Below are positions 601-12,229 of a stretch of DNA of 64,000 nt, one piece after another; position 1 is the first letter of the stretch, and every line of letters begins with the position of its first letter. The translations under genes and the position numbers were made by a program. The stretch is from Natronorubrum halophilum (GTDB lineage: Archaea; Halobacteriota; Halobacteria; Halobacteriales; Natrialbaceae), in NCBI RefSeq assembly GCF_003670115.1, contig NZ_QQTY01000002.1:682001-746000 (forward strand). The letters run 5' to 3'. The notes under the pieces were generated by a model. That model made no database searches. It saw nothing but the letters and a program-made list of their open reading frames with translations, and was not told the origin of the DNA.

Positions 601-2295
601 CTATCCTACCGAGGACTCCGGCGGAGTCAACCACGGTAGCGGCTGCTTCTTCGGACCTAGCCCGCGCTCGAGCCAGCCACGAAGATCGGTAAGTCGCAGT
701 TTATGTCTGGCCGGCAGTTGGTGGACGTACGCCATATCGGATAACAGCCGCTGGTCGAACCCGTACTGCTCGAAGAGCGTTTCACGATCCGGCCACGGGG
801 GTTGGAACGCCGGGAGAAGCGGCGTCTTTCGACGGACGAATCCCTCGATCTCGTTGAGGAGGGTACTATCGTACGGTCGATCGGGTGGTCTGTATCGCAA
901 GATTTCGTCGTCCAGTTGCTCACACGCTTGCAAGAAGGTGTCCGTCGTTCGGTGTGCTGGCGGCGTCTGTAGATGCCACTCGATCAGTTCGCGATCCGTC
1001 GCCAGAAACGACGTGATGAACTGATCCGAGAGGTGGTTGTGGAACGGAACCGACGGCTGGTTGGCGATCCCAACGCAGGTGAGCGTGTTCTGTATCGTCT
1101 CCGCGTGCGAGCGCCTCGAGTCGATTTCGTCGGCGAGTGCCTCCCTGACGAACGCTTCTGGATCGACGTCGAACGACGTTCGGTCGGCGAGTTCGAGGCT
1201 CGCCTCGCGGCTGTATCCGAACTTCTCGAGCAACACCTCGACCGGGTCCGGATCGGGATCGAGGCGACCGGTCGGAATGCGTTTATCGAGGACGTCGACG
1301 GTATCCTGTGCGGTAAAATGGCCCCGGAAGAAGGTGTCACTGAGGAGGCCGTGGTACATCGTGTCGACGTCGATCTCGTCCGTGTAGCCGGCGTGGTGGA
1401 TGTGCAGCGATTCTTTGATCCCGTTCGAGTACCGTATCTTCGACTCGTCGGGACGGAGATACCGCTCGTCCGGCGGAAACGCGGTATGGCTCGCGCCGTA
1501 CTGGTCGGCGAGCTGTTTCGCTCCCTGTACCTCCTGTGCGTTCGGTGCACCGACCGTGTAGCTGTGGTCGATATCGGTCACCTGCGAGAGGATGATCCGC
1601 GAATCGTATCCCGCCGAGAGGAGCACCCCCTTTCGTCCAGGGAGCACCGATCGCCGCTGAAGCGCTCGTTCGAGCCGATCGGCGAGCTCTCCCGCGTAGT
1701 CGAACTCGCGCGGTTGGTAGACGAAGCGATCGAGCGACTCGACTGATGCGGGCGTGAGCCGACTATCCAGCGGGAGACGATGCAGTTCCGTGATCGCCGT
1801 TTTTTCGCCGAGCGTCACACCCATGTGGAGGAACTCGAGGATTCCATTCCGGTTCACCGTCGGCTCGGTAATCGTGCGGCTGACCTCGGCGGCGTCGGTT
1901 CCGAAGACTCGAACCCCGGGTTCGTCGGTGTAGAAACACTCTCGAGATCGGACCGGATCCGTGGCGACGAACCCCCCGTCACTCGTCCCGTCGTCGAGAA
2001 CGGCGACGTACGAGCCGTTGAGCGCCGATAGCGCGTCGCGTCCGTCCGTCTCGTAGCGCTCGAGGAGCCAGCGTGCGGCGTTAGCGCTGTCGTCGGGAGC
2101 GTATATCTCTCCCCAGATAACACAGTAACCGTCGTCGCTGGCGTACTGAGCGCTCCATCCTTGCGTTCCGAGATCGGCGTCCCTGATTCCGACCGTGATG
2201 GCCGGTCCAGTGAGCACCTCGTCGAACTCGTCACCGGATCTGAACCGCCCGAACGCCTCGATACCGCCGAATACGCCGAAGAGTTCCCTGTTCAT
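601..2295 (-). CDS. Asparagine-synthase-like protein without the N-terminal Cys
   Basis: This 564-residue protein has an Ntn-hydrolase-like N-terminal half and an asparagine-synthase-type ATP-pyrophosphatase C-terminal half. The PP-loop is seen as GVLLSAGYDSR (SxGxDS) at about residue 225. Canonical glutamine-dependent AsnB enzymes begin Met-Cys, with the Cys as nucleophile. This one begins MNRELFGVFGG, so glutamine hydrolysis by that mechanism is not expected. Related proteins occur in polysaccharide and lasso-peptide clusters, where they amidate or ligate carboxylates. The neighbouring deacetylase, ATP-grasp and glycosyltransferase genes suggest a role in surface-polymer amidation, which is inference. 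It is divergent from the deacetylase at 2524. Confidence 0.75.
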   Translation of the reverse strand: MNRELFGVFGGIEAFGRFRSGDEFDEVLTGPAITVGIRDADLGTQGWSAQYASDDGYCVIWGEIYAPDDSANAARWLLERYETDGRDALSALNGSYVAVLDDGTSDGGFVATDPVRSRECFYTDEPGVRVFGTDAAEVSRTITEPTVNRNGILEFLHMGVTLGEKTAITELHRLPLDSRLTPASVESLDRFVYQPREFDYAGELADRLERALQRRSVLPGRKGVLLSAGYDSRIILSQVTDIDHSYTVGAPNAQEVQGAKQLADQYGASHTAFPPDERYLRPDESKIRYSNGIKESLHIHHAGYTDEIDVDTMYHGLLSDTFFRGHFTAQDTVDVLDKRIPTGRLDPDPDPVEVLLEKFGYSREASLELADRTSFDVDPEAFVREALADEIDSRRSHAETIQNTLTCVGIANQPSVPFHNHLSDQFITSFLATDRELIEWHLQTPPAHRTTDTFLQACEQLDDEILRYRPPDRPYDSTLLNEIEGFVRRKTPLLPAFQPPWPDRETLFEQYGFDQRLLSDMAYVHQLPARHKLRLTDLRGWLERGLGPKKQPLPWLTPPESSVG

Positions 2296-2523: not shown

Positions 2524-3858
2524 ATGTCACAGAAGCAACCAACGCGACGACGATTCCTCGCTCTGTCGAGTGCGGTTGGGATCGCCGGTATGGCCGGCTG
2601 TGCTGACCGACTCAACTCGGCGCTCGGCCGTTCTGACGGTGACTCCTCGGACGACCCCTCGGACGGTTCGGACGGGTCGACTGCGGCAGCGCTCGCGGAC
2701 GGCGTCCCGCCGCTCGAAACCGAATACAATAGCCGAGAGCAGTACCGCCAGCCCGGAGACTCCTTCGACGATCTGAGTAACCTCGACGACTGGGAGGTCG
2801 TCCAGGGGTCGGGGGAAGCGGACCAGGACGTCGTCTTTGCGGGCGATCAGAGCCTCAAACTGCAGTCCAACGGCAGCGAGAACATCGTCGCGCAGCGATC
2901 CCTCTCGGGAGAGGACCTGACCGAGACGGACCTCTCCTTTGCGATTCGGACGACGACACCGCAGAGCCTCGCGGTCAATCTCCGACTCGTCGACCAGTTC
3001 GGGAGCGAGAAGGTGCACTCGCTCCGGGAGGTCACGTATCGAGCGCCGGACGTCGGCTGGTTCCGCTCGAGCCCCGGCGTCTTCCAACAGAGCGAGTACG
3101 AACCGGCGATGGATTCCCTCGACCGTCTCGAGATCCAGGTCCTGCACTCCATGGACGAGGCGGAGGTCTGGATCGACGACATACGCTCCCACGAGAAACC
3201 CGATCAGGGGTACGTCATGCTGACCTGGGACGACGGCAGTCTGGATTACTACGAGACGGCGTCGCCCCTGCACGACGAGTACGGATTTCAGACGGTTCAA
3301 GCTCCGATTCCACGGTGGACGGAGCAAGGTCGTGACGGAATCATGTCGGTCTCGGAACTTCAGGAGCGCCAGGACGAGGGCGATCAGATCGTCGTCCACG
3401 GCACGCACAACCCTATCCACGAGGAGGACGACGAAGAAGCAATGGAGGCTCGCCTTCGGCAGGACAAACAGTGGTACATCCAAAACGAGTTCGAGGGCGC
3501 GGATTACATCGTCTACCCGCACAACAGCTACAACAAGACCAGTCTCGAGTACACGACGGACTACCACTACTGTGGCGGCTTCAATCAGTCTGGCAACGTC
3601 AACACGACAAGCGTCTACGGCTTCGATCCGCTCGCGCTGCCGCGGACGATCGGCCACGACCTCGACATCTCGAAGCGCTGTGTCGACCTCGCCGCCGAAC
3701 ACAACCAGTGTACGATCTTGAACTTCCACACGTTCGAGGCGAACAACACGATGTCCGAGGGCGACTACGAGGACCTCCTCGAGCACATCGACAGCGCTGA
3801 CGTCGAGGTCGTTACCTTCGACGGCCTCTGGAAGCTTCGGACGGACCAACACTACTAA
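2524..3858 (+). CDS. Tat lipoprotein with C-terminal NodB polysaccharide deacetylase domain
   Basis: The 444-residue protein starts with a twin-arginine signal (RRRFLAL) and a lipobox ending at Cys26 (GMAGC), so it is exported folded and lipid-anchored outside the membrane. An acidic Ser/Asp linker follows, then a beta-sandwich-like region (about residues 65-225) resembling a carbohydrate-binding module. The NodB-homology domain starts near residue 229, with TWDDG (metal and base motif 1), VHGTHN (HxxH-type motif 2) and VYPHN in the place of motif 3. NodB enzymes remove N-acetyl groups from polysaccharides. A paralogue with a similar layout but lost motifs lies at 7875. The AT-rich CATAATAATG at 2485-2494 may be the promoter. 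Confidence 0.85.
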   Translation: MSQKQPTRRRFLALSSAVGIAGMAGCADRLNSALGRSDGDSSDDPSDGSDGSTAAALADGVPPLETEYNSREQYRQPGDSFDDLSNLDDWEVVQGSGEADQDVVFAGDQSLKLQSNGSENIVAQRSLSGEDLTETDLSFAIRTTTPQSLAVNLRLVDQFGSEKVHSLREVTYRAPDVGWFRSSPGVFQQSEYEPAMDSLDRLEIQVLHSMDEAEVWIDDIRSHEKPDQGYVMLTWDDGSLDYYETASPLHDEYGFQTVQAPIPRWTEQGRDGIMSVSELQERQDEGDQIVVHGTHNPIHEEDDEEAMEARLRQDKQWYIQNEFEGADYIVYPHNSYNKTSLEYTTDYHYCGGFNQSGNVNTTSVYGFDPLALPRTIGHDLDISKRCVDLAAEHNQCTILNFHTFEANNTMSEGDYEDLLEHIDSADVEVVTFDGLWKLRTDQHY

Positions 3859-4032
3859 TTCTTCGCTACGCCCGCCGTCGACTCCTATCTCGACTCGTCG
3901 CAGGCGATTCTGCAGAGTGATGCCGGCGTTCACTCCGATAGCTACCGTGATACGTGACGGAAAAACAGCGGTGGAAACCGAATGATACGGCGTGATGTCC
4001 ACGACCGAGCGCCCGAAAGCGCCGGTGACAAA

Positions 4033-5235
4033 CTATTCCGTCGAGAGCGTGATCGAGTCGGTATCGGTCCGCCCGTCGTCGTCGACCACGCGCAGGACGA
4101 CCGAGTCTCGAGCGTTCGCGCCGACCGTCACCGTAATCGTTTCACCGGTTTCGTCGAACTCACCGGTCTTGCCGACGTCCCACTCGTAGTCGACGATGTC
4201 ACCGTCCGAGGCCGACGAGCACGAAGCGTTGAGTTCGATCGTCTGGCCCGACTCGAGGGCCCGTTCGTCGGCTCCCTCGGGAACCGTCTTGATCGTCGCG
4301 GTCGGCGACTCGGGTTCGTCTGCGTCGGCATCGTCGGACGCATCCTCGTCCGGTTTGTCCTCGTCAGGTTCCTCCGGCTCGTCCGGTTCCGCCTCTTCGG
4401 GCTCGTCGGGGGTGTTCCCGTCCTCGGGGAACAATCCGTCTGCAACCAGTTGCTCGGTGATTGCCAGGTGCCACTCGACGCGGGTTTCGAGGTCGACGTC
4501 GACCGAGAGCGTCTCCACCAGGAACGCGTCGGCACCCAGGTCTCGAGCGGCCTTGTGAACGAGCAGTCCCTGCGGGTCGTTGTCCGGCCTGGAGAACGGC
4601 CCAGTCTGGAACGCGCGCGTCGGATCGTCCACGTAGTTCCGAGTCACGTAGTCGGCGGTCTCCGCGGCGGCGTTGACGGCCTCGTCGTTGCTCGAGTGGA
4701 AGATCGCTTGTCCGACGCCGTCGACGGGATCGTCCGCGTAGATGCCCCTCGATTCGTGGAGATCGACGACGACATCGGGATCGTACTCGCTGATGACGGC
4801 CCAGATGGCCCGTGCGAGTTCCGTCTCCGGATCGTCGCCCTCGTGGAACTGCCGGTTGAGATCGACGCCCTCGTCGTCGGTTCGAGTCCCGCGATCGACC
4901 GCGACGGTATCCGCTCTGGGGATGGTGACGAGCGTCCCCACGTCGATCGCCCAGTCGGCGACCTCCTCTGCGGCCGCGTAGCCGGCGACTTCGTTGCCGT
5001 GGATGCCGCCGACGACGACGACCGTCGGACCGTCCGCGTCCGCAGTCGTGACGTGGACCGTCGTTTCCCGGTTCGTTCCGTCCATAATCGGGAACGAGTC
5101 TCGCGTGATACCCGCATCGTCCTCGTTCGATTCGTCGTCGTCCTGGCCGCTGACCGTGGCGATACCGATGCCCGCGAGCGCACAGCCAGCCGTAGTGGTT
5201 AGTACTGCTCTCCGCGAAATGTCATCACCTTGCAT
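4033..5235 (-). CDS. Secreted M14-like (succinylglutamate desuccinylase/aspartoacylase-type) hydrolase with PKD domain
   Basis: This 400-residue protein carries a Tat signal (SRRAVL, Arg8-Arg9) followed by a hydrophobic stretch ending at SGQ. The catalytic domain shows the zinc-binding GGIHGNE (His79, Glu82) and a third ligand candidate in VVDLHES (His160), as in the zinc carboxypeptidase-like AstE/ASPA superfamily. A Pro/Glu/Asp-rich linker (about residues 275-310) leads to a C-terminal PKD-type beta-sandwich containing VDYEWDVG. The family hydrolyses amide bonds of amino-acid derivatives. An extracellular substrate is likely, but which one cannot be told. It runs opposite to the deacetylase at 2524 and converges with it. 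Confidence 0.8.
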   Translation of the reverse strand: MQGDDISRRAVLTTTAGCALAGIGIATVSGQDDDESNEDDAGITRDSFPIMDGTNRETTVHVTTADADGPTVVVVGGIHGNEVAGYAAAEEVADWAIDVGTLVTIPRADTVAVDRGTRTDDEGVDLNRQFHEGDDPETELARAIWAVISEYDPDVVVDLHESRGIYADDPVDGVGQAIFHSSNDEAVNAAAETADYVTRNYVDDPTRAFQTGPFSRPDNDPQGLLVHKAARDLGADAFLVETLSVDVDLETRVEWHLAITEQLVADGLFPEDGNTPDEPEEAEPDEPEEPDEDKPDEDASDDADADEPESPTATIKTVPEGADERALESGQTIELNASCSSASDGDIVDYEWDVGKTGEFDETGETITVTVGANARDSVVLRVVDDDGRTDTDSITLSTE

Positions 5236-5387
5236 GTCAGTACGGAGTTTGAAACGGGTGATGTTTACTATCGCGAGTATAACCCAGGAACATTTTCCAT
5301 TTCATTCGCGAAATGGTTAGCTCGTCGTCGATACGGCGGAATACGGCCTTTTAGCTCGCCTGCGACCGAAATCCGACGGAAGACAGG

Positions 5388-6521
5388 CTAACACACACCG
5401 TGTCGTTCGTAGAACTCCCGAACGCGGTCGTCCGTCAACAGCGGCCCGTGGACCTGGATCGACTTGAGACCGGGGTAGCTGTTCGCCTCGATGACCGAGA
5501 ACTCCCCATCGTCGCCGGTGACGATGACGTCCCAGCCGATGTACGGCAGGAACGAGCAGGCGTCGGCCATCTCGAGTACGCCCGCTCGAATGCGGTCCCA
5601 GCCGGGAATTCGCACCCCTTCGACCGGCGTCCCGGTGTCCGGGTGGGTCGAGTGCCACCCGACGCGGTCGCCCTCGGGCGGCTGCGCACCGGGACCGAGT
5701 TCACCCGTCTCGAGGTCGATCTTCGCGGAGAGTCCGCCCTGCGTGAAGTTGTCCAAGGGGGCGGACCTCGTCGTCCCGATGCGCTGGATCGCCGCGGCGA
5801 CGAACGGTTCGCCGGCCGCCTCGTCGTACATCGTGATGATTCGGAGGGTGTTCGGCGTCGACGGGTACAGGACGGCCGAGAACGAGCTCTGCGCGACGAA
5901 CTCGCAGACGAGGTACTCATCGAGATCCGCGACCAGCGAACGGAGTTCCGCCTCGGTGTACTCGTCGCCGTTCACCCGGTAGCCGTCGTCGGTGTTCACA
6001 CACAGGAGCACGTTGTGTCCGCCGCCGCCGTGAGCCCACTTGAGGACCAGTCGGTTCTCGTCCTCAAGTCGGTCGACGACTCGCTCGCCGGCGTCGTACG
6101 TTTCCGGCGCCTTCTCGCCGCCGGAACCGACCGCCGCCGTGGTGCTCGACCCGCCGTCCGTCAGCGGGAGATGGGACTCCGTCGCGTCGACCGAGTGGTA
6201 CGTACCATCACGGACCATTCCGTAGACGGTCATTCGCCTGTCGTCGAACGGCTGCATCACCCGGTGAAAGAGGAGCTTGTTCGACAGCGCGACCGACCAC
6301 GTTCCGTTAATCTTCTTCGTCCGCACGTACCGTTGATAGTCGCTCACGTAGTCCTGTGCCGTGGACTCCTCGAGGTCGTACACGGCGTCGGATTGGCTCA
6401 CGAAGCCGCGACGCCAGAGCCAGAGCCGACGACGGAGCGATCGTGAAGCCGTCGACTCGCGTTCGGCCGCTGTGAATCCCTGCACTCCCCTGGCGGTGTG
6501 GTAGAGCGATCGGACGTTCAT
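5388..6521 (-). CDS. Sugar-transfer-associated ATP-grasp protein
   Basis: This 377-residue protein resembles the ATP-grasp family found beside glycosyltransferases in polysaccharide and teichuronopeptide clusters. Visible features are the N-terminal SNKLLFHRVM segment, the ATP-grasp lysine and glycine loop LVLKWAHGGGGHNV, and the late motif IGWDVIVTGDDGEFSVIEANSYPG, whose Asp/Glu/Asn probably bind Mg-ATP. ATP-grasp enzymes activate a carboxylate as acyl phosphate and join it to an amine or thiol. Here that probably means decorating a surface glycan with an amino acid, which is inference. It lies on the same strand as, and downstream of, the glycosyltransferase at 6684, separated by 162 nt. 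Confidence 0.8.
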   Translation of the reverse strand: MNVRSLYHTARGVQGFTAAERESTASRSLRRRLWLWRRGFVSQSDAVYDLEESTAQDYVSDYQRYVRTKKINGTWSVALSNKLLFHRVMQPFDDRRMTVYGMVRDGTYHSVDATESHLPLTDGGSSTTAAVGSGGEKAPETYDAGERVVDRLEDENRLVLKWAHGGGGHNVLLCVNTDDGYRVNGDEYTEAELRSLVADLDEYLVCEFVAQSSFSAVLYPSTPNTLRIITMYDEAAGEPFVAAAIQRIGTTRSAPLDNFTQGGLSAKIDLETGELGPGAQPPEGDRVGWHSTHPDTGTPVEGVRIPGWDRIRAGVLEMADACSFLPYIGWDVIVTGDDGEFSVIEANSYPGLKSIQVHGPLLTDDRVREFYERHGVC

Positions 6522-6683
6522 AGCCGATCCTGCCGTCCGGATCGTGTTAGTTACCGATCGGTAAAGATCGTTTCAGGTATGAGAGCGACGGGAGGGCGAC
6601 GAGGTGGGGACGGATCCGCGAGGTGCCCTTGAGCGTTCGCCGACCGGTGCCGCCGGTGCGTTGCCCACCCGGTTGAAGCGCAG

Positions 6684-7682
6684 CTACTCGGTGAGAACGC
6701 GACGGGCGATCGAATACCGCCCCAGAACGGCCAGAACGGTCACGAGTGCGAGGACCGCAATCATTGCGACGATCGGAACCGGGCGACGCCGGACGCCGGT
6801 GCCGGCAGCCCAGCAGACGCCGGGAACATGTCGCGGCGACACCGACGCCTTTCGGCCGTGCCACGCGCCCCGCAGGAGACGCCCTTCGGCGAAGTACCGC
6901 TTCGCGAGGAGCAGTTCGTGCGTCGATCGAATGTCGTATCCCTCGGCCTCGAAGCGATCGACCGTTTCGTCGTACGCCGACAGGTACTGCTCGTCGGCGT
7001 CCCGGACGACGTCGGCCGGCGGGTGTCCCGTCTCCTCGCGGACGACGAGTTCCTCGTCGACGTACGCGAGTTTGCCAGCCTCGAGCACGCGCAGACAGAA
7101 CTCGGGATCCTGGAACCGGTCGAGTTGTTCGTCGAATCCACCGATCTCGCTCGCGACGTCGGTTCGGACGAGCAGCGTCGAACCGGCCCCCGGTTGGACG
7201 TTGTCCGCCAGGATTTCGCCGATCAGTTCCTCACCCCCTTCCCTCGCGGGCTCCTCGTCCTCGCGAGCGAGCACGGCTGCGACGGCCGATCGGAGCCTGC
7301 CGCTCGCTCCCGACAGTTCGTACGCCGAGTCGCAGTACGCGCCGACCCACTCGCTCGAGCGATCCTCGAGGACGGCGAGTTGGCGCTCGAGTTTCTCGGG
7401 ACGCCACTCGTCGTCCGAGTCGAGGAAGGCGACGTACTCGCCGCGGGCGTGTTCGATGCCCGTGTTCCGAGCGACGTTCGCCCCCTGGTTCGTCGCGTGG
7501 ATGACCGGCCGAACTCGGGGATCGTCGTATCCGGCCAGTACCGAATCGGTGTCGTCGGTCGAGCCGTCGTCGACGACGACGACCTCCAGGTCGTCGACCG
7601 TTTGCTCGAGTGCGCTGTCGATCGCGCGAGGAAGCGTCGCCGCTCTGTTGTACGTCGGAATGATGACGCTGATACGAGTCAT
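6684..7682 (-). CDS. Family 2 glycosyltransferase (GT-A)
   Basis: The 332-residue protein opens with the classic GT2 signature ISVIIPTYNRAATLPRAIDS and VVVVDDGSTDDT. The nucleotide-sugar/metal motif is AFLDSDDEW. The C-terminus contains a hydrophobic segment (VPIVAMIAVLALVTVLAVLG) that should place it at the membrane. The donor and acceptor cannot be inferred. It is divergent from the deacetylase-like gene at 7875; the 186-nt spacer should hold both promoters. It probably forms a transcription unit with the ATP-grasp gene downstream. Confidence 0.88.
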   Translation of the reverse strand: MTRISVIIPTYNRAATLPRAIDSALEQTVDDLEVVVVDDGSTDDTDSVLAGYDDPRVRPVIHATNQGANVARNTGIEHARGEYVAFLDSDDEWRPEKLERQLAVLEDRSSEWVGAYCDSAYELSGASGRLRSAVAAVLAREDEEPAREGGEELIGEILADNVQPGAGSTLLVRTDVASEIGGFDEQLDRFQDPEFCLRVLEAGKLAYVDEELVVREETGHPPADVVRDADEQYLSAYDETVDRFEAEGYDIRSTHELLLAKRYFAEGRLLRGAWHGRKASVSPRHVPGVCWAAGTGVRRRPVPIVAMIAVLALVTVLAVLGRYSIARRVLTE

Positions 7683-7837
7683 TTTTCGGTAGTAGTCGCT
7701 CGGATGGGATTATTATCGCGTGGGTAAACGCCGCGTCAGCGCACGTTCCCGCTTGCAGCGAGACGAGTTCTCGACGAGAGCAACACGAAACGACCCGATC
7801 ACTACGCCCTGAGTGGGTGGCACCTCCTTCTAATAAC

Positions 7838-7845
7838 TGTATAAG
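7838..7845 (+). promoter_or_regulatory. TATA box for the deacetylase-like gene at 7875
   Basis: The bases TGTATAAG are centred about 27 nt before 7869. The predicted transcript would begin at or just before the GTG at 7869, giving either a leaderless GTG start or a leader of about 6 nt to the ATG at 7875. Confidence 0.5.
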
Positions 7846-7874
7846 AAAGACCGAACGATTCGTGGCCGGTGTTA

Positions 7875-9137
7875 ATGACGAACCGAAACCGACGAACGTT
7901 CATAACTACGGTTGCAGCGACCGGAACGCTCGGACTCGCCGGGTGCCTCTCGAGCATCCGCGAGTGGCGCGGCGGGGACGAGAAGTCGCCGTCTCAGCCG
8001 GGCGACGAGGACGACGAACCCGAGCCGAGCGATCTGCCCGATCTCCCCGGGGAGTCGATCGAGACTTTCGAGAACCTCGATGAGTGGGCATCGCTGATCG
8101 ACGCCGGGGCGCTCGAGGCCGGAACGGACGATCCCTACGCGGGCTCTCAGTCCGCCCACCTCACAGCGGACGAGGAGACCGACTACGCGGCGATCTACAG
8201 GACGATCTCCGATGGGATGGACCTGCGGGATTCGAACCTCTCGCTCGCCGTCTCCTTCACCGGCCGCGACCAACTACGGCTCACCCTCGAGTTGTTCGCA
8301 CCGAACTCGCGTAACGTGTACACGATGCGCCGGACGCTTACCGGACCCACCGACCGCTGGGTCCGCGTCGACTTCGGGACGACTCGCGTCGAAACCCAAC
8401 CCGATCTCTCGGACGTTCGCGAGATTCGCCTGACAGCGCGGCGGCGCGGCAATCAAACCGGTTCGATCGACTGCCGAGTCGACGACCTCCGCACCGTCGA
8501 CCGGCCCGAGACGGGACGGGTCATGTTGCTGTTCGACGGGACGCTCGAGAGCCACCGCACGAACGCGTTCGAGCGCATGCAAGAGTACGGCTTTTCGGGC
8601 GTCGAGGCAGTCATCCCCGAGGCCGTCGGTGAGCAGGGGAGGCTTACGATCGACGCGCTCAGCGAACTTGACGACGCCGGATGGGACATGGCGGCCCGTC
8701 CGCGAACGGGCGCACAATCCATCCACGAGTTCTCACCCGAAGAGCAAGAGGGGATGATCAGACGGACGAAAGCGTACCTCGAGAACCGCGGCTTCGCCGA
8801 CGGTGCGAAACACTTCGTCACGCCCCGGAACGTGCTCGGGTCGGACACCATCGATCTCGTCAGGGAGTACCACGAGCAAGCGTTCCGGTTCGGCGGCGGT
8901 CCGAACGGCGTGCCGTTTACGGATCCCCACAACGTGGGATTCTTCTCCGGCGACGCGGGAGCGGAAACGGAGAGGTACGTCGATTACGCCGCCGAGTACG
9001 GCCAGCTCGCGGTGTTGCACTTCGAGTACATCGGGCAAGAGGGGCTGTCCGAACGAGCGTTCGATGACCTGCTCGAGTACATCGACGACGCCGACGTCGA
9101 GGTCGTCACCGCGACGGAACTGCTGGAGGGGTCATGA
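7875..9137 (+). CDS. Tat lipoprotein, NodB-like deacetylase homologue with degenerate active site
   Basis: From the ATG at 7875 this is 420 residues; an in-frame GTG at 7869 would add two. It has a Tat motif (NRRTFI) and lipobox LAGC (Cys24), an acidic linker, a beta-sandwich like that of the 2524 protein, and a C-terminal domain in the position of NodB. The catalytic motifs are altered: where the paralogue has TWDDG this has LLFDGT, and where the paralogue has VHGTHN this has MAARPRTG, with both motif-2 histidines gone. Metal-dependent deacetylation is therefore unlikely, and a glycan-binding or structural role is more plausible. The stop codon overlaps the ATG of the 22-codon ORF at 9134. 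Confidence 0.8.
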   Translation: MTNRNRRTFITTVAATGTLGLAGCLSSIREWRGGDEKSPSQPGDEDDEPEPSDLPDLPGESIETFENLDEWASLIDAGALEAGTDDPYAGSQSAHLTADEETDYAAIYRTISDGMDLRDSNLSLAVSFTGRDQLRLTLELFAPNSRNVYTMRRTLTGPTDRWVRVDFGTTRVETQPDLSDVREIRLTARRRGNQTGSIDCRVDDLRTVDRPETGRVMLLFDGTLESHRTNAFERMQEYGFSGVEAVIPEAVGEQGRLTIDALSELDDAGWDMAARPRTGAQSIHEFSPEEQEGMIRRTKAYLENRGFADGAKHFVTPRNVLGSDTIDLVREYHEQAFRFGGGPNGVPFTDPHNVGFFSGDAGAETERYVDYAAEYGQLAVLHFEYIGQEGLSERAFDDLLEYIDDADVEVVTATELLEGS

Positions 9138-10564: not shown

Positions 10565-12229
10565 TTAGATCTCGGGACCCAGTATTCCGAGGGCGATTCC
10601 GGAGGCGAACAGCGCGATCCCGGCAGCGAGGAGCAGCGTCTGTATCCAGCTTCGCGACGATTGGTCGTTCGTCCTCGCCTCGAGGCGCTCGTAGATCTCG
10701 TTCGCCCTCGAGCCGATCGGATCGGGGAATATCGACAGGATCTCGAACGGCTCCGCCGAGTCGAGAGCGCCGACGAAAATCGCGAAGGCGACGAAAACCA
10801 GGAACCCGACGGGCGGGACGATTGCGAGGGCGAGCCACTGATTCGTGATCACCGACGCGAGGGAGACGATGGGAATGCCGGCGAGGATAGCCGCGATCGC
10901 ACCGCGACCGAGTCGCGCATCCGCGAGCGGATCGAATCCGATGACTCGAGCGCTCACGCAGTGGAAGGCGAACATCGATCCGTAGCCGATGCTGGTCGCG
11001 ACGGCCGCGCCGCTCATCCCGTACCGCGGGATCAACACGGCGTTGAGGATGACGTTGATCACGGCTGCGATGCCGGTCGCTGCGACCGGGTACCGGAGGG
11101 TTCCGTTCCCCTGTGAAATGGCGAGGATCGGTCTGGCGAGTGCGAACCCGAGCGCTCCGGGGAGCAACAACAACAGCGGCTCGATCGCTGGTTTCGCTTC
11201 GGCACCGAAGTATACCGGCACGGCGACATCGGCCAGCGCCGCGAGACCGACGGCCATGATGGCGGTCACGAGGAACGTGTATCGCGTCGTCCGCGATGCG
11301 AGCTCCGTAATCTTTCGATGACGGTTCTGGGACCACAGCTCCGACGTGGAGTGAACGTACACCGTCTGGAGGGCGATCGGAACGAACCAGAGGAACTCGG
11401 CGAGCGTGAGCGCCGCCCGGTAGTTCCCGACCGACGCGCTGTCCCTGAACTGCTGGAGCATCACGATGTCGATGTGGTAGAGCGACATCAGCAGGAAGAC
11501 GAGGACGATACTCATCGAGTTGAACGTGAACATCTCTCGGCGCGGAAAGTCGCTGGTCGGCTTGCTGAACACGCACGACAACGGGATCCGACGATTGACG
11601 AGGGCGAGTCCGACGGCGGCCACGAGTATGCTCGCGAACAGGTGACCCGCGAGGGCACCTAATACGCCGGCACCGAAGTACACGAGCGGAATCGAGACGA
11701 CGACGAAGCCGACCTTATCGAGTACCTTCAGCGGCTCCGAATAGCGCTCGAGGCCGAATCCCATGAGCGTCTTCCGGGCGTAGTCGCGAAACTGTGCGGT
11801 GATCACGAGGAGCGTGAGGGCGTAGAAGTAGATCGACAACCCGTCACCGAACACGGAGCTGACGATCCCGGATTGGGCGGCGATCAGGAGCAACACCGCG
11901 CCACCGACGGCGAGGATGGCGGCGAGTCGGAAGTAAAAGCCGACGACGTGCTCGCTCCAGTTCGCCGCGGTACGGTCCTCGGCGAGAAATTTCCGGACGC
12001 CATCGGTAATGCCGGAGCTGACGAAGATCATGTAGATGGCAAACACCGACATCAGGAACGAGTAGTCGCCGAAGCCGGAGGCACCGAGAAATCGGTACAG
12101 CAACGGCATCGAGACGGCGGTGACGACGAGAACGACGACCTTCGTACTGACGACGGAGAAGACACCGCTCGCGATACTTCTATTCACGGTTTCACCCATG
12201 GACGATCGAACCACCGATCGGTTCCCCAC
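10565..12229 (-). CDS. Oligosaccharide flippase, MOP superfamily (Wzx/AglR-like)
   Basis: This 554-residue protein has about 12-14 hydrophobic helices across residues 15-470, then a soluble acidic segment (about 490-530), then a final hydrophobic stretch near the C-terminus. The pattern ASGVFSVVSTKVVVLVVTAVSMPLLYRFLG...FGDYSFLM is typical of polysaccharide-biosynthesis exporters: an N-terminal helix, then 'G..FG.Y'. Such proteins flip lipid-linked oligosaccharides across the membrane. It fits with the two glycosyltransferases and the mutase as the export step of the locus. The late soluble segment plus extra helix is less usual. Confidence 0.85.
   Translation of the reverse strand: MGNRSVVRSSMGETVNRSIASGVFSVVSTKVVVLVVTAVSMPLLYRFLGASGFGDYSFLMSVFAIYMIFVSSGITDGVRKFLAEDRTAANWSEHVVGFYFRLAAILAVGGAVLLLIAAQSGIVSSVFGDGLSIYFYALTLLVITAQFRDYARKTLMGFGLERYSEPLKVLDKVGFVVVSIPLVYFGAGVLGALAGHLFASILVAAVGLALVNRRIPLSCVFSKPTSDFPRREMFTFNSMSIVLVFLLMSLYHIDIVMLQQFRDSASVGNYRAALTLAEFLWFVPIALQTVYVHSTSELWSQNRHRKITELASRTTRYTFLVTAIMAVGLAALADVAVPVYFGAEAKPAIEPLLLLLPGALGFALARPILAISQGNGTLRYPVAATGIAAVINVILNAVLIPRYGMSGAAVATSIGYGSMFAFHCVSARVIGFDPLADARLGRGAIAAILAGIPIVSLASVITNQWLALAIVPPVGFLVFVAFAIFVGALDSAEPFEILSIFPDPIGSRANEIYERLEARTNDQSSRSWIQTLLLAAGIALFASGIALGILGPEI

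What the first reader, a model, noticed from the sequence alone, without database searches (positions are those of the whole stretch)
2524..9137. Pair of deacetylase-type lipoproteins, one apparently dead
Both paralogues have Tat lipoprotein signals, a beta-sandwich and a C-terminal NodB-like domain. The first keeps TWDDG and VHGTHN; the second has LLFDGT and MAARPRTG in these places. A catalytic and pseudo-enzyme pair in one surface-polymer locus suggests the second binds rather than processes glycan.
Basis: partly seen in the sequence, partly recalled or inferred. Interest (0 to 1): 0.5.

Follow-up and report, generated by a model that had tools for sequence, protein, structure and literature searches.

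The report
Conserved dead deacetylase lipoprotein in haloarchaea
A salt-loving archaeon carries two related surface proteins in a sugar-polymer gene cluster, one looking like a working deacetylase and one whose working parts have been replaced by a different, strongly kept set of residues; both have the same predicted shape as the head of the spikes on a virus that infects a related archaeon.

Summary
P1 (2524-3858) and P2 (7869-9137) are Tat-type lipoproteins with a beta-sandwich plus a NodB domain, 29% identical. In 54 P1 homologues both MT1 Asp, two MT2 His, an Arg and the MT5 His are invariant. In 58 P2 homologues the second Asp is Gly/Ala/Ser, both His are gone, the Arg is Phe/Val/Thr and the MT5 His is Glu/Asp in 56. 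P2 is not decaying: its former active site is conserved above the rest of the domain and dN/dS is below 1. The two are not a recent duplicate: each is a separate clade, and P2 groups with proteins of other haloarchaea that keep D-D-H. The locus is conserved in the family: 57 of 60 P2 genomes also carry P1, 56 of 57 within 10 kb. P2 is patchy, often missing from otherwise intact loci. Unexpectedly, both models match the HFTV1 virus turret head over both domains (Z 43.8 and 44.7; next 19.8 and 17.8). Best reading: P2 is a repurposed, non-hydrolytic glycan-binding surface lipoprotein. Binding is inferred, and P1's activity is unproven.

The parts
2524..3858 (+). P1: deacetylase-type lipoprotein, 444 aa
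   Evidence: model pLDDT 84.8
2524..2601 (+). P1 twin-arginine signal and lipobox (RRRF...AGC, aa 1-26)
   Evidence: RR-lipobox pattern in 48 of 54 P1 homologues
2755..3201 (+). P1 beta-sandwich, CBM-like (aa about 78-226)
   Evidence: strands; CBM-bearing 1wky Z 14.3 and CBM11 1v0a Z 13.9
3202..3855 (+). P1 NodB-like domain (aa about 227-444)
   Evidence: Pfam PF01522 at aa 225-349
3229..3234 (+). P1 MT1 Asp pair D236 D237
   Evidence: 54 of 54 homologues
3397..3408 (+). P1 MT2 HGTH, H292 and H295
   Evidence: 54 of 54, a set picked by this string; 46 of 46 in a set picked by BLAST score; spacing differs from HTxxH
7869..9137 (+). P2: dead NodB lipoprotein, 422 aa (start probably ATG 7875)
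   Evidence: model pLDDT 86.9
7869..7946 (+). P2 twin-arginine signal and lipobox (aa 1-26)
   Evidence: pattern in 56 of 58 P2 homologues
8049..8504 (+). P2 beta-sandwich (aa 61-212)
   Evidence: matches the 8qpg turret head on its own, E 1.4e-10; CBM-bearing 1wky Z 14.9
8505..9134 (+). P2 NodB-fold domain without the metal site (aa 213-422)
8532..8555 (+). P2 replaced MT1, FDGTLESH (G224 at the second Asp)
   Evidence: second Asp lost 58 of 58; H229 58 of 58
8697..8711 (+). P2 replaced MT2, RPRTG (R277-G281)
   Evidence: set picked by this motif
8820..8831 (+). P2 MT3-equivalent TPRN (aa 318-321)
   Evidence: P319 and N321 58 of 58, both shared with P1 and HP-type; R or K at 320 in 54 of 58
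8886..8888 (+). P2 R340, Arg in all P2 homologues, Ser/Thr in 12 of 14 HP-type and Asn in P1
   Evidence: 58 of 58
9024..9026 (+). P2 E386 in place of the MT5 His
   Evidence: E 47, D 9, T 1, V 1 of 58
601..2295 (-). asparagine-synthase-like neighbour
   Evidence: PF00733; conserved neighbour
4033..5235 (-). AspA/AstE-like protein with PKD domain, optional in the locus
5388..6521 (-). sugar-transfer ATP-grasp protein, optional in the locus
   Evidence: PF14397
6684..7682 (-). GT2a glycosyltransferase
   Evidence: PF00535
9202..10260 (+). GT2b glycosyltransferase; best NCBIfam match AglJ, far below its cut-off (73.6 against 325 bits)
10565..12229 (-). polysaccharide flippase-type transporter
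   Evidence: PF01943
12379..14028 (-). right-handed beta-helix protein
   Evidence: PF13229

Best explanation
P2 is a conserved pseudo-deacetylase: a membrane-anchored surface lipoprotein whose NodB barrel has lost metal chemistry and been rebuilt, with a new, strongly conserved residue set (FDGTLESH, RPRTG, TPRN, R340, E386), into a pocket that binds the glycan made by its own locus. The beta-sandwich would act as a second sugar-binding part. P1, in the same locus, would be the active or near-active deacetylase. Shown here from sequence and models: anchoring signals, fold, loss of the metal-site residues, purifying selection on the replaced motifs, conserved locus, repeated absence of P2 from otherwise intact loci. 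Inferred: that the ligand is the locus glycan, that it is acidic (several conserved arginines at or near the old motifs), and that the role is holding, organising or presenting the polymer.
For: Second Asp, Arg and MT5 His lost in 58 of 58 P2, kept in 54 of 54 P1. The former motif windows are more conserved than the rest of the P2 domain: mean entropy 0.48 against 1.09, 4 of 5000 random window sets as low; without the MT2 window, which helped define the set, 0.54 against 1.09 and 142 of 20000. NodB dN/dS median 0.33, maximum 0.63 in 1200 overlapping pairs. P2 clade 100/100. Locus AsnSyn-P1-GT2a-P2-GT2b-flippase-beta-helix kept across genera, with exceptions. Both domains superpose on the HFTV1 turret head, Z 43.8, 1.9 A over 350 residues, for which its authors propose glycan binding (PMC12494034, passages). 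Sandwich resembles a CBM-bearing mannanase (1wky Z 14.9). Precedent: lipoproteins BA0330/BA0331 lack activity in assays yet bind peptidoglycan (PMC4505593, section 39).
Against: No binding data. D223 (55 of 58), H229 (58) and E/D386 (56) could still support non-metal chemistry. Taken singly, only the MT1 and MT2 windows of P2 stand out in conservation; MT3, MT4 and MT5 windows do not. P2 is dispensable: no orthologue in 20 of 77 P1 genomes. Three P2 genomes lack P1, against strict partnership. No coordinates were available, so the pocket is inferred from alignment and secondary structure. P2 dN/dS is higher than P1's (medians 0.33 and 0.23). The virus relative itself keeps the catalytic residues, so its likeness does not argue for a dead binder as such.
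Confidence: 0.55

Rival explanations
1. P2 is a new enzyme: the NodB barrel was given a different, metal-independent active site, as in PuuE allantoinases.
For: D223, H229, E/D386, R277 and R340 are nearly invariant in P2. The NodB review reports that PuuE lacks both MT1 Asp and one MT2 His and works without metal (PMC10967932, passages); PuuE 3cl6 is in the fold list (Z 17.7).
Against: No enzyme with this residue set is known to me (recall, not a search). PuuE keeps the MT4 Asp and MT5 His, while P2 has Glu or Asp at the MT5 place.
Confidence: 0.15
2. P2 is a partner or regulator of P1 (mixed trimer or scaffold), since the related virus head is a trimer.
For: 57 of 60 P2 genomes also have P1, 56 of 57 within 10 kb; the HFTV1 turret head is a trimer (PMC12494034, passages).
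Against: P1 occurs without a P2 orthologue in 20 of 77 genomes and P2 without P1 in 3 of 60. P1 and P2 belong to separate deep clades. The virus trimer stalk was not matched: the match starts at head residue 47 (P2) or 35 (P1).
Confidence: 0.18
3. P2 is a decaying gene with no function.
For: It is often missing (absence needs 8 changes on the locus tree), short P2-like pieces remain in 5 of 10 P2-less gaps, and one copy is split by a frameshift (G104).
Against: In the 58 aligned homologues it is under purifying selection, and its old MT1 and MT2 stretches are conserved above the rest of the domain.
Confidence: 0.04

Closest known systems
HFTV1 turret head protein gp31 (PDB 8QPG)
   Same: Same two-domain fold over nearly the whole mature length: P2 Z 43.8 over 350 residues, P1 Z 44.7 over 367; sequence E 1.3e-22 with P2 and 1.4e-8 with P1.
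   Different: The virus protein keeps D-D, HxxxH and the MT5 His and its authors model zinc. Its first residues form a capsid-mounting stalk, where P1 and P2 carry a Tat-lipobox signal and linker.
CE4 / NodB polysaccharide deacetylases (PF01522)
   Same: P1 passes the Pfam cut-off; both have the fold.
   Different: P2 lacks the metal triad; P1 has HGTH rather than HTxxH.
Bacillus CE4 pseudoenzymes and inactive lipoprotein PDAs (BA3943, BA0150, BA0330/BA0331)
   Same: NodB fold; called pseudoenzyme in the PDB title (BA3943) or catalytically inert (BA0150); BA0330/BA0331 are lipoproteins without detected deacetylation that bind peptidoglycan.
   Different: BA0330 keeps its zinc and catalytic residues; P2 does not. 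No haloarchaeal case seen in the listings of searches.
HP-type lipoproteins of Haladaptataceae, Halosimplex and Natrononativus (14 sequences)
   Same: Closest kin of P2 in the tree (P2 plus these 98/93); five that lie in named plasmid records sit in glycan-type loci.
   Different: All 14 keep D-D-H-R-H; all 14 lack the second MT2 His.

Membership tests
CE4 / Polysacc_deac_1, for P1 | Pfam PF01522 above gathering score | tested here: met
   39.6 against 23.1 bits
CE4 / Polysacc_deac_1, for P1 | MT1 tandem Asp and MT5 His | tested here: met
   54 of 54
CE4 / Polysacc_deac_1, for P1 | MT2 HTxxH or H(T/S)xxxH (PMC10967932, passages) | tested here: not met
   HGTH in 54 of 54, a set picked by that string, and 46 of 46 picked by BLAST score. 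So P1 is filed as a NodB-domain protein that may work like a CE4 enzyme, not as a proven CE4 enzyme
CE4 / Polysacc_deac_1, for P1 | deacetylase activity | not testable with these tools
   needs assay
CE4 / Polysacc_deac_1, for P2 | Pfam PF01522 match | tested here: not met
   no family at E up to 10
CE4 / Polysacc_deac_1, for P2 | NodB fold | tested here: met
   3rxz Z 19.8, 2.7 A over 205; 3qbu Z 18.8, 2.6 A over 201
CE4 / Polysacc_deac_1, for P2 | Asp-His-His metal triad | tested here: not met
   G/A/S at the second Asp 58 of 58; R277 and T280/G281 at the His, by alignment
HFTV1-type turret head | beta-sandwich plus NodB in one arrangement | tested here: met
   Z 43.8, 1.9 A, 350 residues
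HFTV1-type turret head | N-terminal stalk that fits a turret base | tested here: inconclusive
   match starts at P2 residue 57 / head residue 47; P2 has a signal, lipobox and low-confidence linker there
HFTV1-type turret head | trimer | not testable with these tools
   no multimer prediction here
Haloarchaeal Tat lipoprotein | RR motif and lipobox Cys | tested here: met
   P1 48 of 54, P2 56 of 58 homologues by pattern
Haloarchaeal Tat lipoprotein | export and lipid attachment | not tested
   needs experiment

The most novel reading that the evidence does not exclude
The head of the HFTV1 virus spike is a haloarchaeal surface glycan protein captured by the virus, with its membrane anchor exchanged for a capsid stalk. 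P2 is the cellular form turned into a pure lectin by rebuilding the active site. Its repeated absence from otherwise intact glycan loci reflects pressure from viruses or other agents that recognise the same glycan.
Probability: 0.18. Interest if true: 0.8.

Novelty: new variant of a known kind. Interest (0 to 1): 0.55.

Why it matters
CE4 pseudoenzymes are described from bacteria and a microsporidian in the sources I saw; this is a conserved archaeal clade in which the dead site remains under strong constraint, with stepwise relatives (D-D-H-H, D-D-H, none). It also gives the HFTV1 turret head, described in its paper as apparently evolved specifically for that virus, a full-length cellular counterpart family, one member of which lies in a glycan-type locus of the virus's own host strain. 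The natural P2-minus genomes make the function testable.

Tried and rejected
Decayed gene: rejected on conservation. Recent enzyme/pseudoenzyme duplication: rejected, P1 and P2 are separate clades at 100/100. Viral relatives: the viral-contig scans with P0001 and P0002 found no relative and the turret-head scan found only a contig with the identical HFTV1 protein; 3 of 8 scans used, and they find close relatives only. In annotated phage records only the two HFTV1 records match over 80% or more of the query; Bacillus phage G, Arthrobacter, Gordonia and EBPR phages match in part. PHROGs gave nothing.

Against a special HFTV1 link: among predicted viral structures (Foldseek) HFTV1 ranks first for P2 (E 8.1e-30), but Bacillus phage G gp673, Arthrobacter phage Qui esterase and two unnamed proteins also match over 369-409 columns (E 4e-25 to 4e-22). 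So the two-domain form is not confined to HFTV1, and the PDB list lacks predicted cellular proteins. I first left this out; because of it I lowered the probability of the novel case from 0.22 to 0.18.

Placement of the virus head within the family is unresolved. It is a long branch (2.37). Its best BLAST hits are P2-type proteins (best E 8.6e-28, 30%). Holding it together with the two Haloferax proteins is not rejected (p-AU 0.467), and the second test did not finish. By domain, its sandwich scores best with HP-type, P2 and the long dead group (74.5, 72.6, 70.2 bits; P1 41.3) while its NodB scores best with the D-D-H-H group (57.3; P2 29.0). Groups differ in size, so I draw no conclusion.

Superposition of metal sites was not possible because model coordinates are not released. 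Bacterial-type promoter scan: not informative for archaea.

Limits of counts: the P1 and P2 sets were picked by HGTH and RP[RQGS]TG strings, so conservation inside those strings is by construction; the tree of 86 representatives shows them as clades. One search set apart one frameshifted P2 copy. Of 20 genomes with P1 but no P2 orthologue, 13 were fetched: in 10 the locus stands without P2, in 3 (L185, L186, L188) the fetched P1 copy lies outside such a locus. Rows were typed from the E-ranked lists. P2-like pieces in gaps were sought within the gap only, so their E-values are lenient; the one in L176 is 13 residues and the one in L177 covers the signal region. Changes counted on trees are the fewest and may include regain or transfer; on the locus tree 99 of 500 shuffles were as low.
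Full report
WHAT IS THERE. The window lies in a haloarchaeon. Two genomes of its genus (G106, G107) have contigs of the same lengths as records of Natronorubrum sulfidifaciens and N. texcoconense, so the genus is probably Natronorubrum. P1 (2524-3858, +) and P2 (7869-9137, +) are each a twin-arginine lipobox protein with a low-confidence linker, a beta-sandwich and a NodB-like domain. They are 29% identical. P1 passes the Pfam deacetylase cut-off; P2 matches no Pfam model. The same genome has three more members of the family at E 3.6e-31 or better with P2.

THE ACTIVE SITE. In an alignment of 147 family members I compared 54 P1-type, 58 P2-type and 14 HP-type sequences. P1: both MT1 Asp, H292, H295, P332, R374, H402 in 54 of 54. 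P2: first Asp kept (55; Asn 3), second Asp replaced by Gly 53, Ala 3, Ser 2; H292 place is Arg and H295 place is Thr in 58; R374 place is Phe 42, Val 9, Thr 7; H402 place is Glu 47, Asp 9, Thr 1, Val 1. The other 19 cellular members are mixed: second Asp kept in 9, first His in 7. That the second Asp binds the metal and the first is the base is recalled from SpPgdA; the review passage I read assigns the first Asp to the metal (PMC10967932). Either way one Asp and both His are gone. In the models the strand that carries MT1 ends at D237 in P1 and at D223 in P2, and the MT2 residues directly follow a later barrel strand in both (288-291 and 273-276), which agrees with the alignment. P1's HGTH has its His three apart; the review gives HTxxH or H(T/S)xxxH. 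So P1 is a likely but not certain enzyme.

NOT DECAY. In 36 P2 representatives the five former motif windows have mean entropy 0.48 against 1.09 for the rest of the domain, and 4 of 5000 random window sets were as low. Leaving out the MT2 window, which helped define the set, the figures are 0.54 against 1.09 and 142 of 20000. Taken singly, MT1 and MT2 windows stand out (114 and 102 of 20000) and the other three do not (3001, 7806, 5445). P1's windows are also more conserved than the rest of its domain (75 of 5000). NodB dN/dS: median 0.33 for P2 (1200 pairs, 0.05 to 0.63) and 0.23 for P1 (1252 pairs, 0.05 to 0.74); the pairs overlap. Residues that set P2 apart from both P1 and HP-type are G224, R277, R340 and E/D386; H229 and R258 are shared with most HP-type proteins; R or K at 320 is found in 54 of 58 P2 and K in 12 of 14 HP-type.

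HISTORY. A tree of 86 representatives has P1 and P2 each as a clade at 100/100. P2 plus the 14 HP-type proteins forms a group at 98/93. All 14 keep D-D-H-R-H but lack the second His, so the metal site was probably eroded before P2 lost the rest. Five named plasmid stretches show such proteins beside various sets of asparagine-synthase-like, glycosyltransferase, flippase or polysaccharide-biosynthesis, DUF1616 and beta-helix genes. In Natrononativus the gene lies between the asparagine-synthase-like gene and a GT2 gene, and no P1 was found in that stretch (L042). The label 'second Asp and first His both lost' needs at least 5 changes on a tree built without the motif columns, 4 of them forced by well-supported branches, so several independent losses are likely; regain is not excluded. 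One further dead group is mostly 620-660 residues long.

LOCUS. Among 125 genomes of the family P2 orthologues occur in 60, P1 orthologues in 77, both in 57; in 56 of these 57 their starts lie within 10 kb; in the 57th, G096, they are 96 kb apart. The order AsnSyn, P1, optional AspA-like and ATP-grasp genes, GT2a, P2, GT2b, flippase, beta-helix is widely kept, with exceptions: P1 is not seen in L039 and L042, and GT2b is not seen in several. Of 20 genomes with P1 but no P2 orthologue I fetched 13; in 10 the locus stands without P2 and in 3 the fetched P1 copy lies elsewhere. In the ten, the gap beside GT2a is 303-564 bases (in L187 measured to the flippase) against 1448-1546 in three P2 loci, and five gaps still hold short P2-like pieces, two of them weak or confined to the signal region. 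On a tree of three locus markers from 45 loci the absence label needs 8 changes. P1 is missing beside P2 in three genomes of one genus (G018-G020; a fourth, G022, has both). So P2 behaves as an optional part, kept intact or deleted.

THE VIRUS LINK. Against solved structures both models match one entry far above all others: the turret of Haloferax tailed virus 1. P2: Z 43.8, 1.9 A, 350 residues, next 19.8. P1: Z 44.7, 2.2 A, 367 residues, next 17.8. Sequence agrees (P2 E 1.3e-22, P1 1.4e-8). The match covers both domains and starts after the signal and linker. In the virus the N-terminal part belongs to a stalk set in a turret base (PMC12494034, passages). The authors propose that the head binds and deacetylates host glycans, and describe it as apparently evolved specifically for HFTV1; the word lipoprotein does not occur in their main text. 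Virions bind cells head-first in 50 to 70% of cases (PMC9973310, passages). The host strain LR2-5 has a family member (HfgLR_RS18360) on pHGLR2 near an ATP-grasp, a GT2, a DUF1616 and a lipopolysaccharide-biosynthesis gene; the host genome paper's main text does not contain the word deacetylase (PMC7921747, find). Two limits: other phage proteins also match P2 over both domains among predicted viral structures, and no library of predicted cellular structures was on hand. Which cellular branch the virus protein comes from, and the direction of transfer, are unresolved.

HOW IT LIKELY WORKS. P2 is exported, lipid-anchored, and holds or organises the locus glycan through its sandwich and a rebuilt pocket with conserved arginines; P1 trims acetyl groups. 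Signals, fold, residue loss, selection and locus come from sequence and models; glycan binding, ligand charge and P1 activity are inference. A new metal-free enzyme or a P1 partner remain possible.

NOVELTY. CE4 pseudoenzymes are known (BA3943 by PDB title; BA0150 and EcCDA in the review passages; inactive lipoprotein PDAs in PMC4505593, outline and section 39). I saw no report of this haloarchaeal clade in the listings of searches, which cover only open-licence papers. I therefore call it a new variant of a known kind.

Noticed in passing
L120:8818-10074 (pHGLR2 of Haloferax gibbonsii LR2-5): The host strain of HFTV1 carries a cellular relative of the virus turret head (34.6% identical to P2) in a glycan-type locus.
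   Followed up: partly
L078:9056-10957 and similar (own genome C1:534088): A second dead NodB lipoprotein group, mostly 620-660 aa (one of 420), with YGGHDSH- and YPRVSAP-like motifs, occurs in the same genome and relatives.
   Followed up: partly
L057, L086, L087, L080: Further family members with differently lost metal sites (HGGYESH, PENTTEV), suggesting several independent losses.
   Followed up: partly
G087-G095 (genus code g20): Several P1-type copies in most of these genomes, about 47-56% identical to P1, with no P2 orthologue; one of them (G095, L187) keeps a short P2-like piece in the locus.
   Followed up: partly
L049:8228-9283 (G104): P2 is split by a frameshift in this draft genome.
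   Followed up: no
window 4033-5235: AspA/M14-like protein with PKD domain and a twin-arginine-like start, an optional gene of the glycan locus; role unknown.
   Followed up: no
G074:C1, C2, C3 and C4: One genome has four P2 copies on four contigs; three match plasmid records of Natrinema sp. DC36, and the plasmid copy looked at lies away from a full glycan locus.
   Followed up: partly
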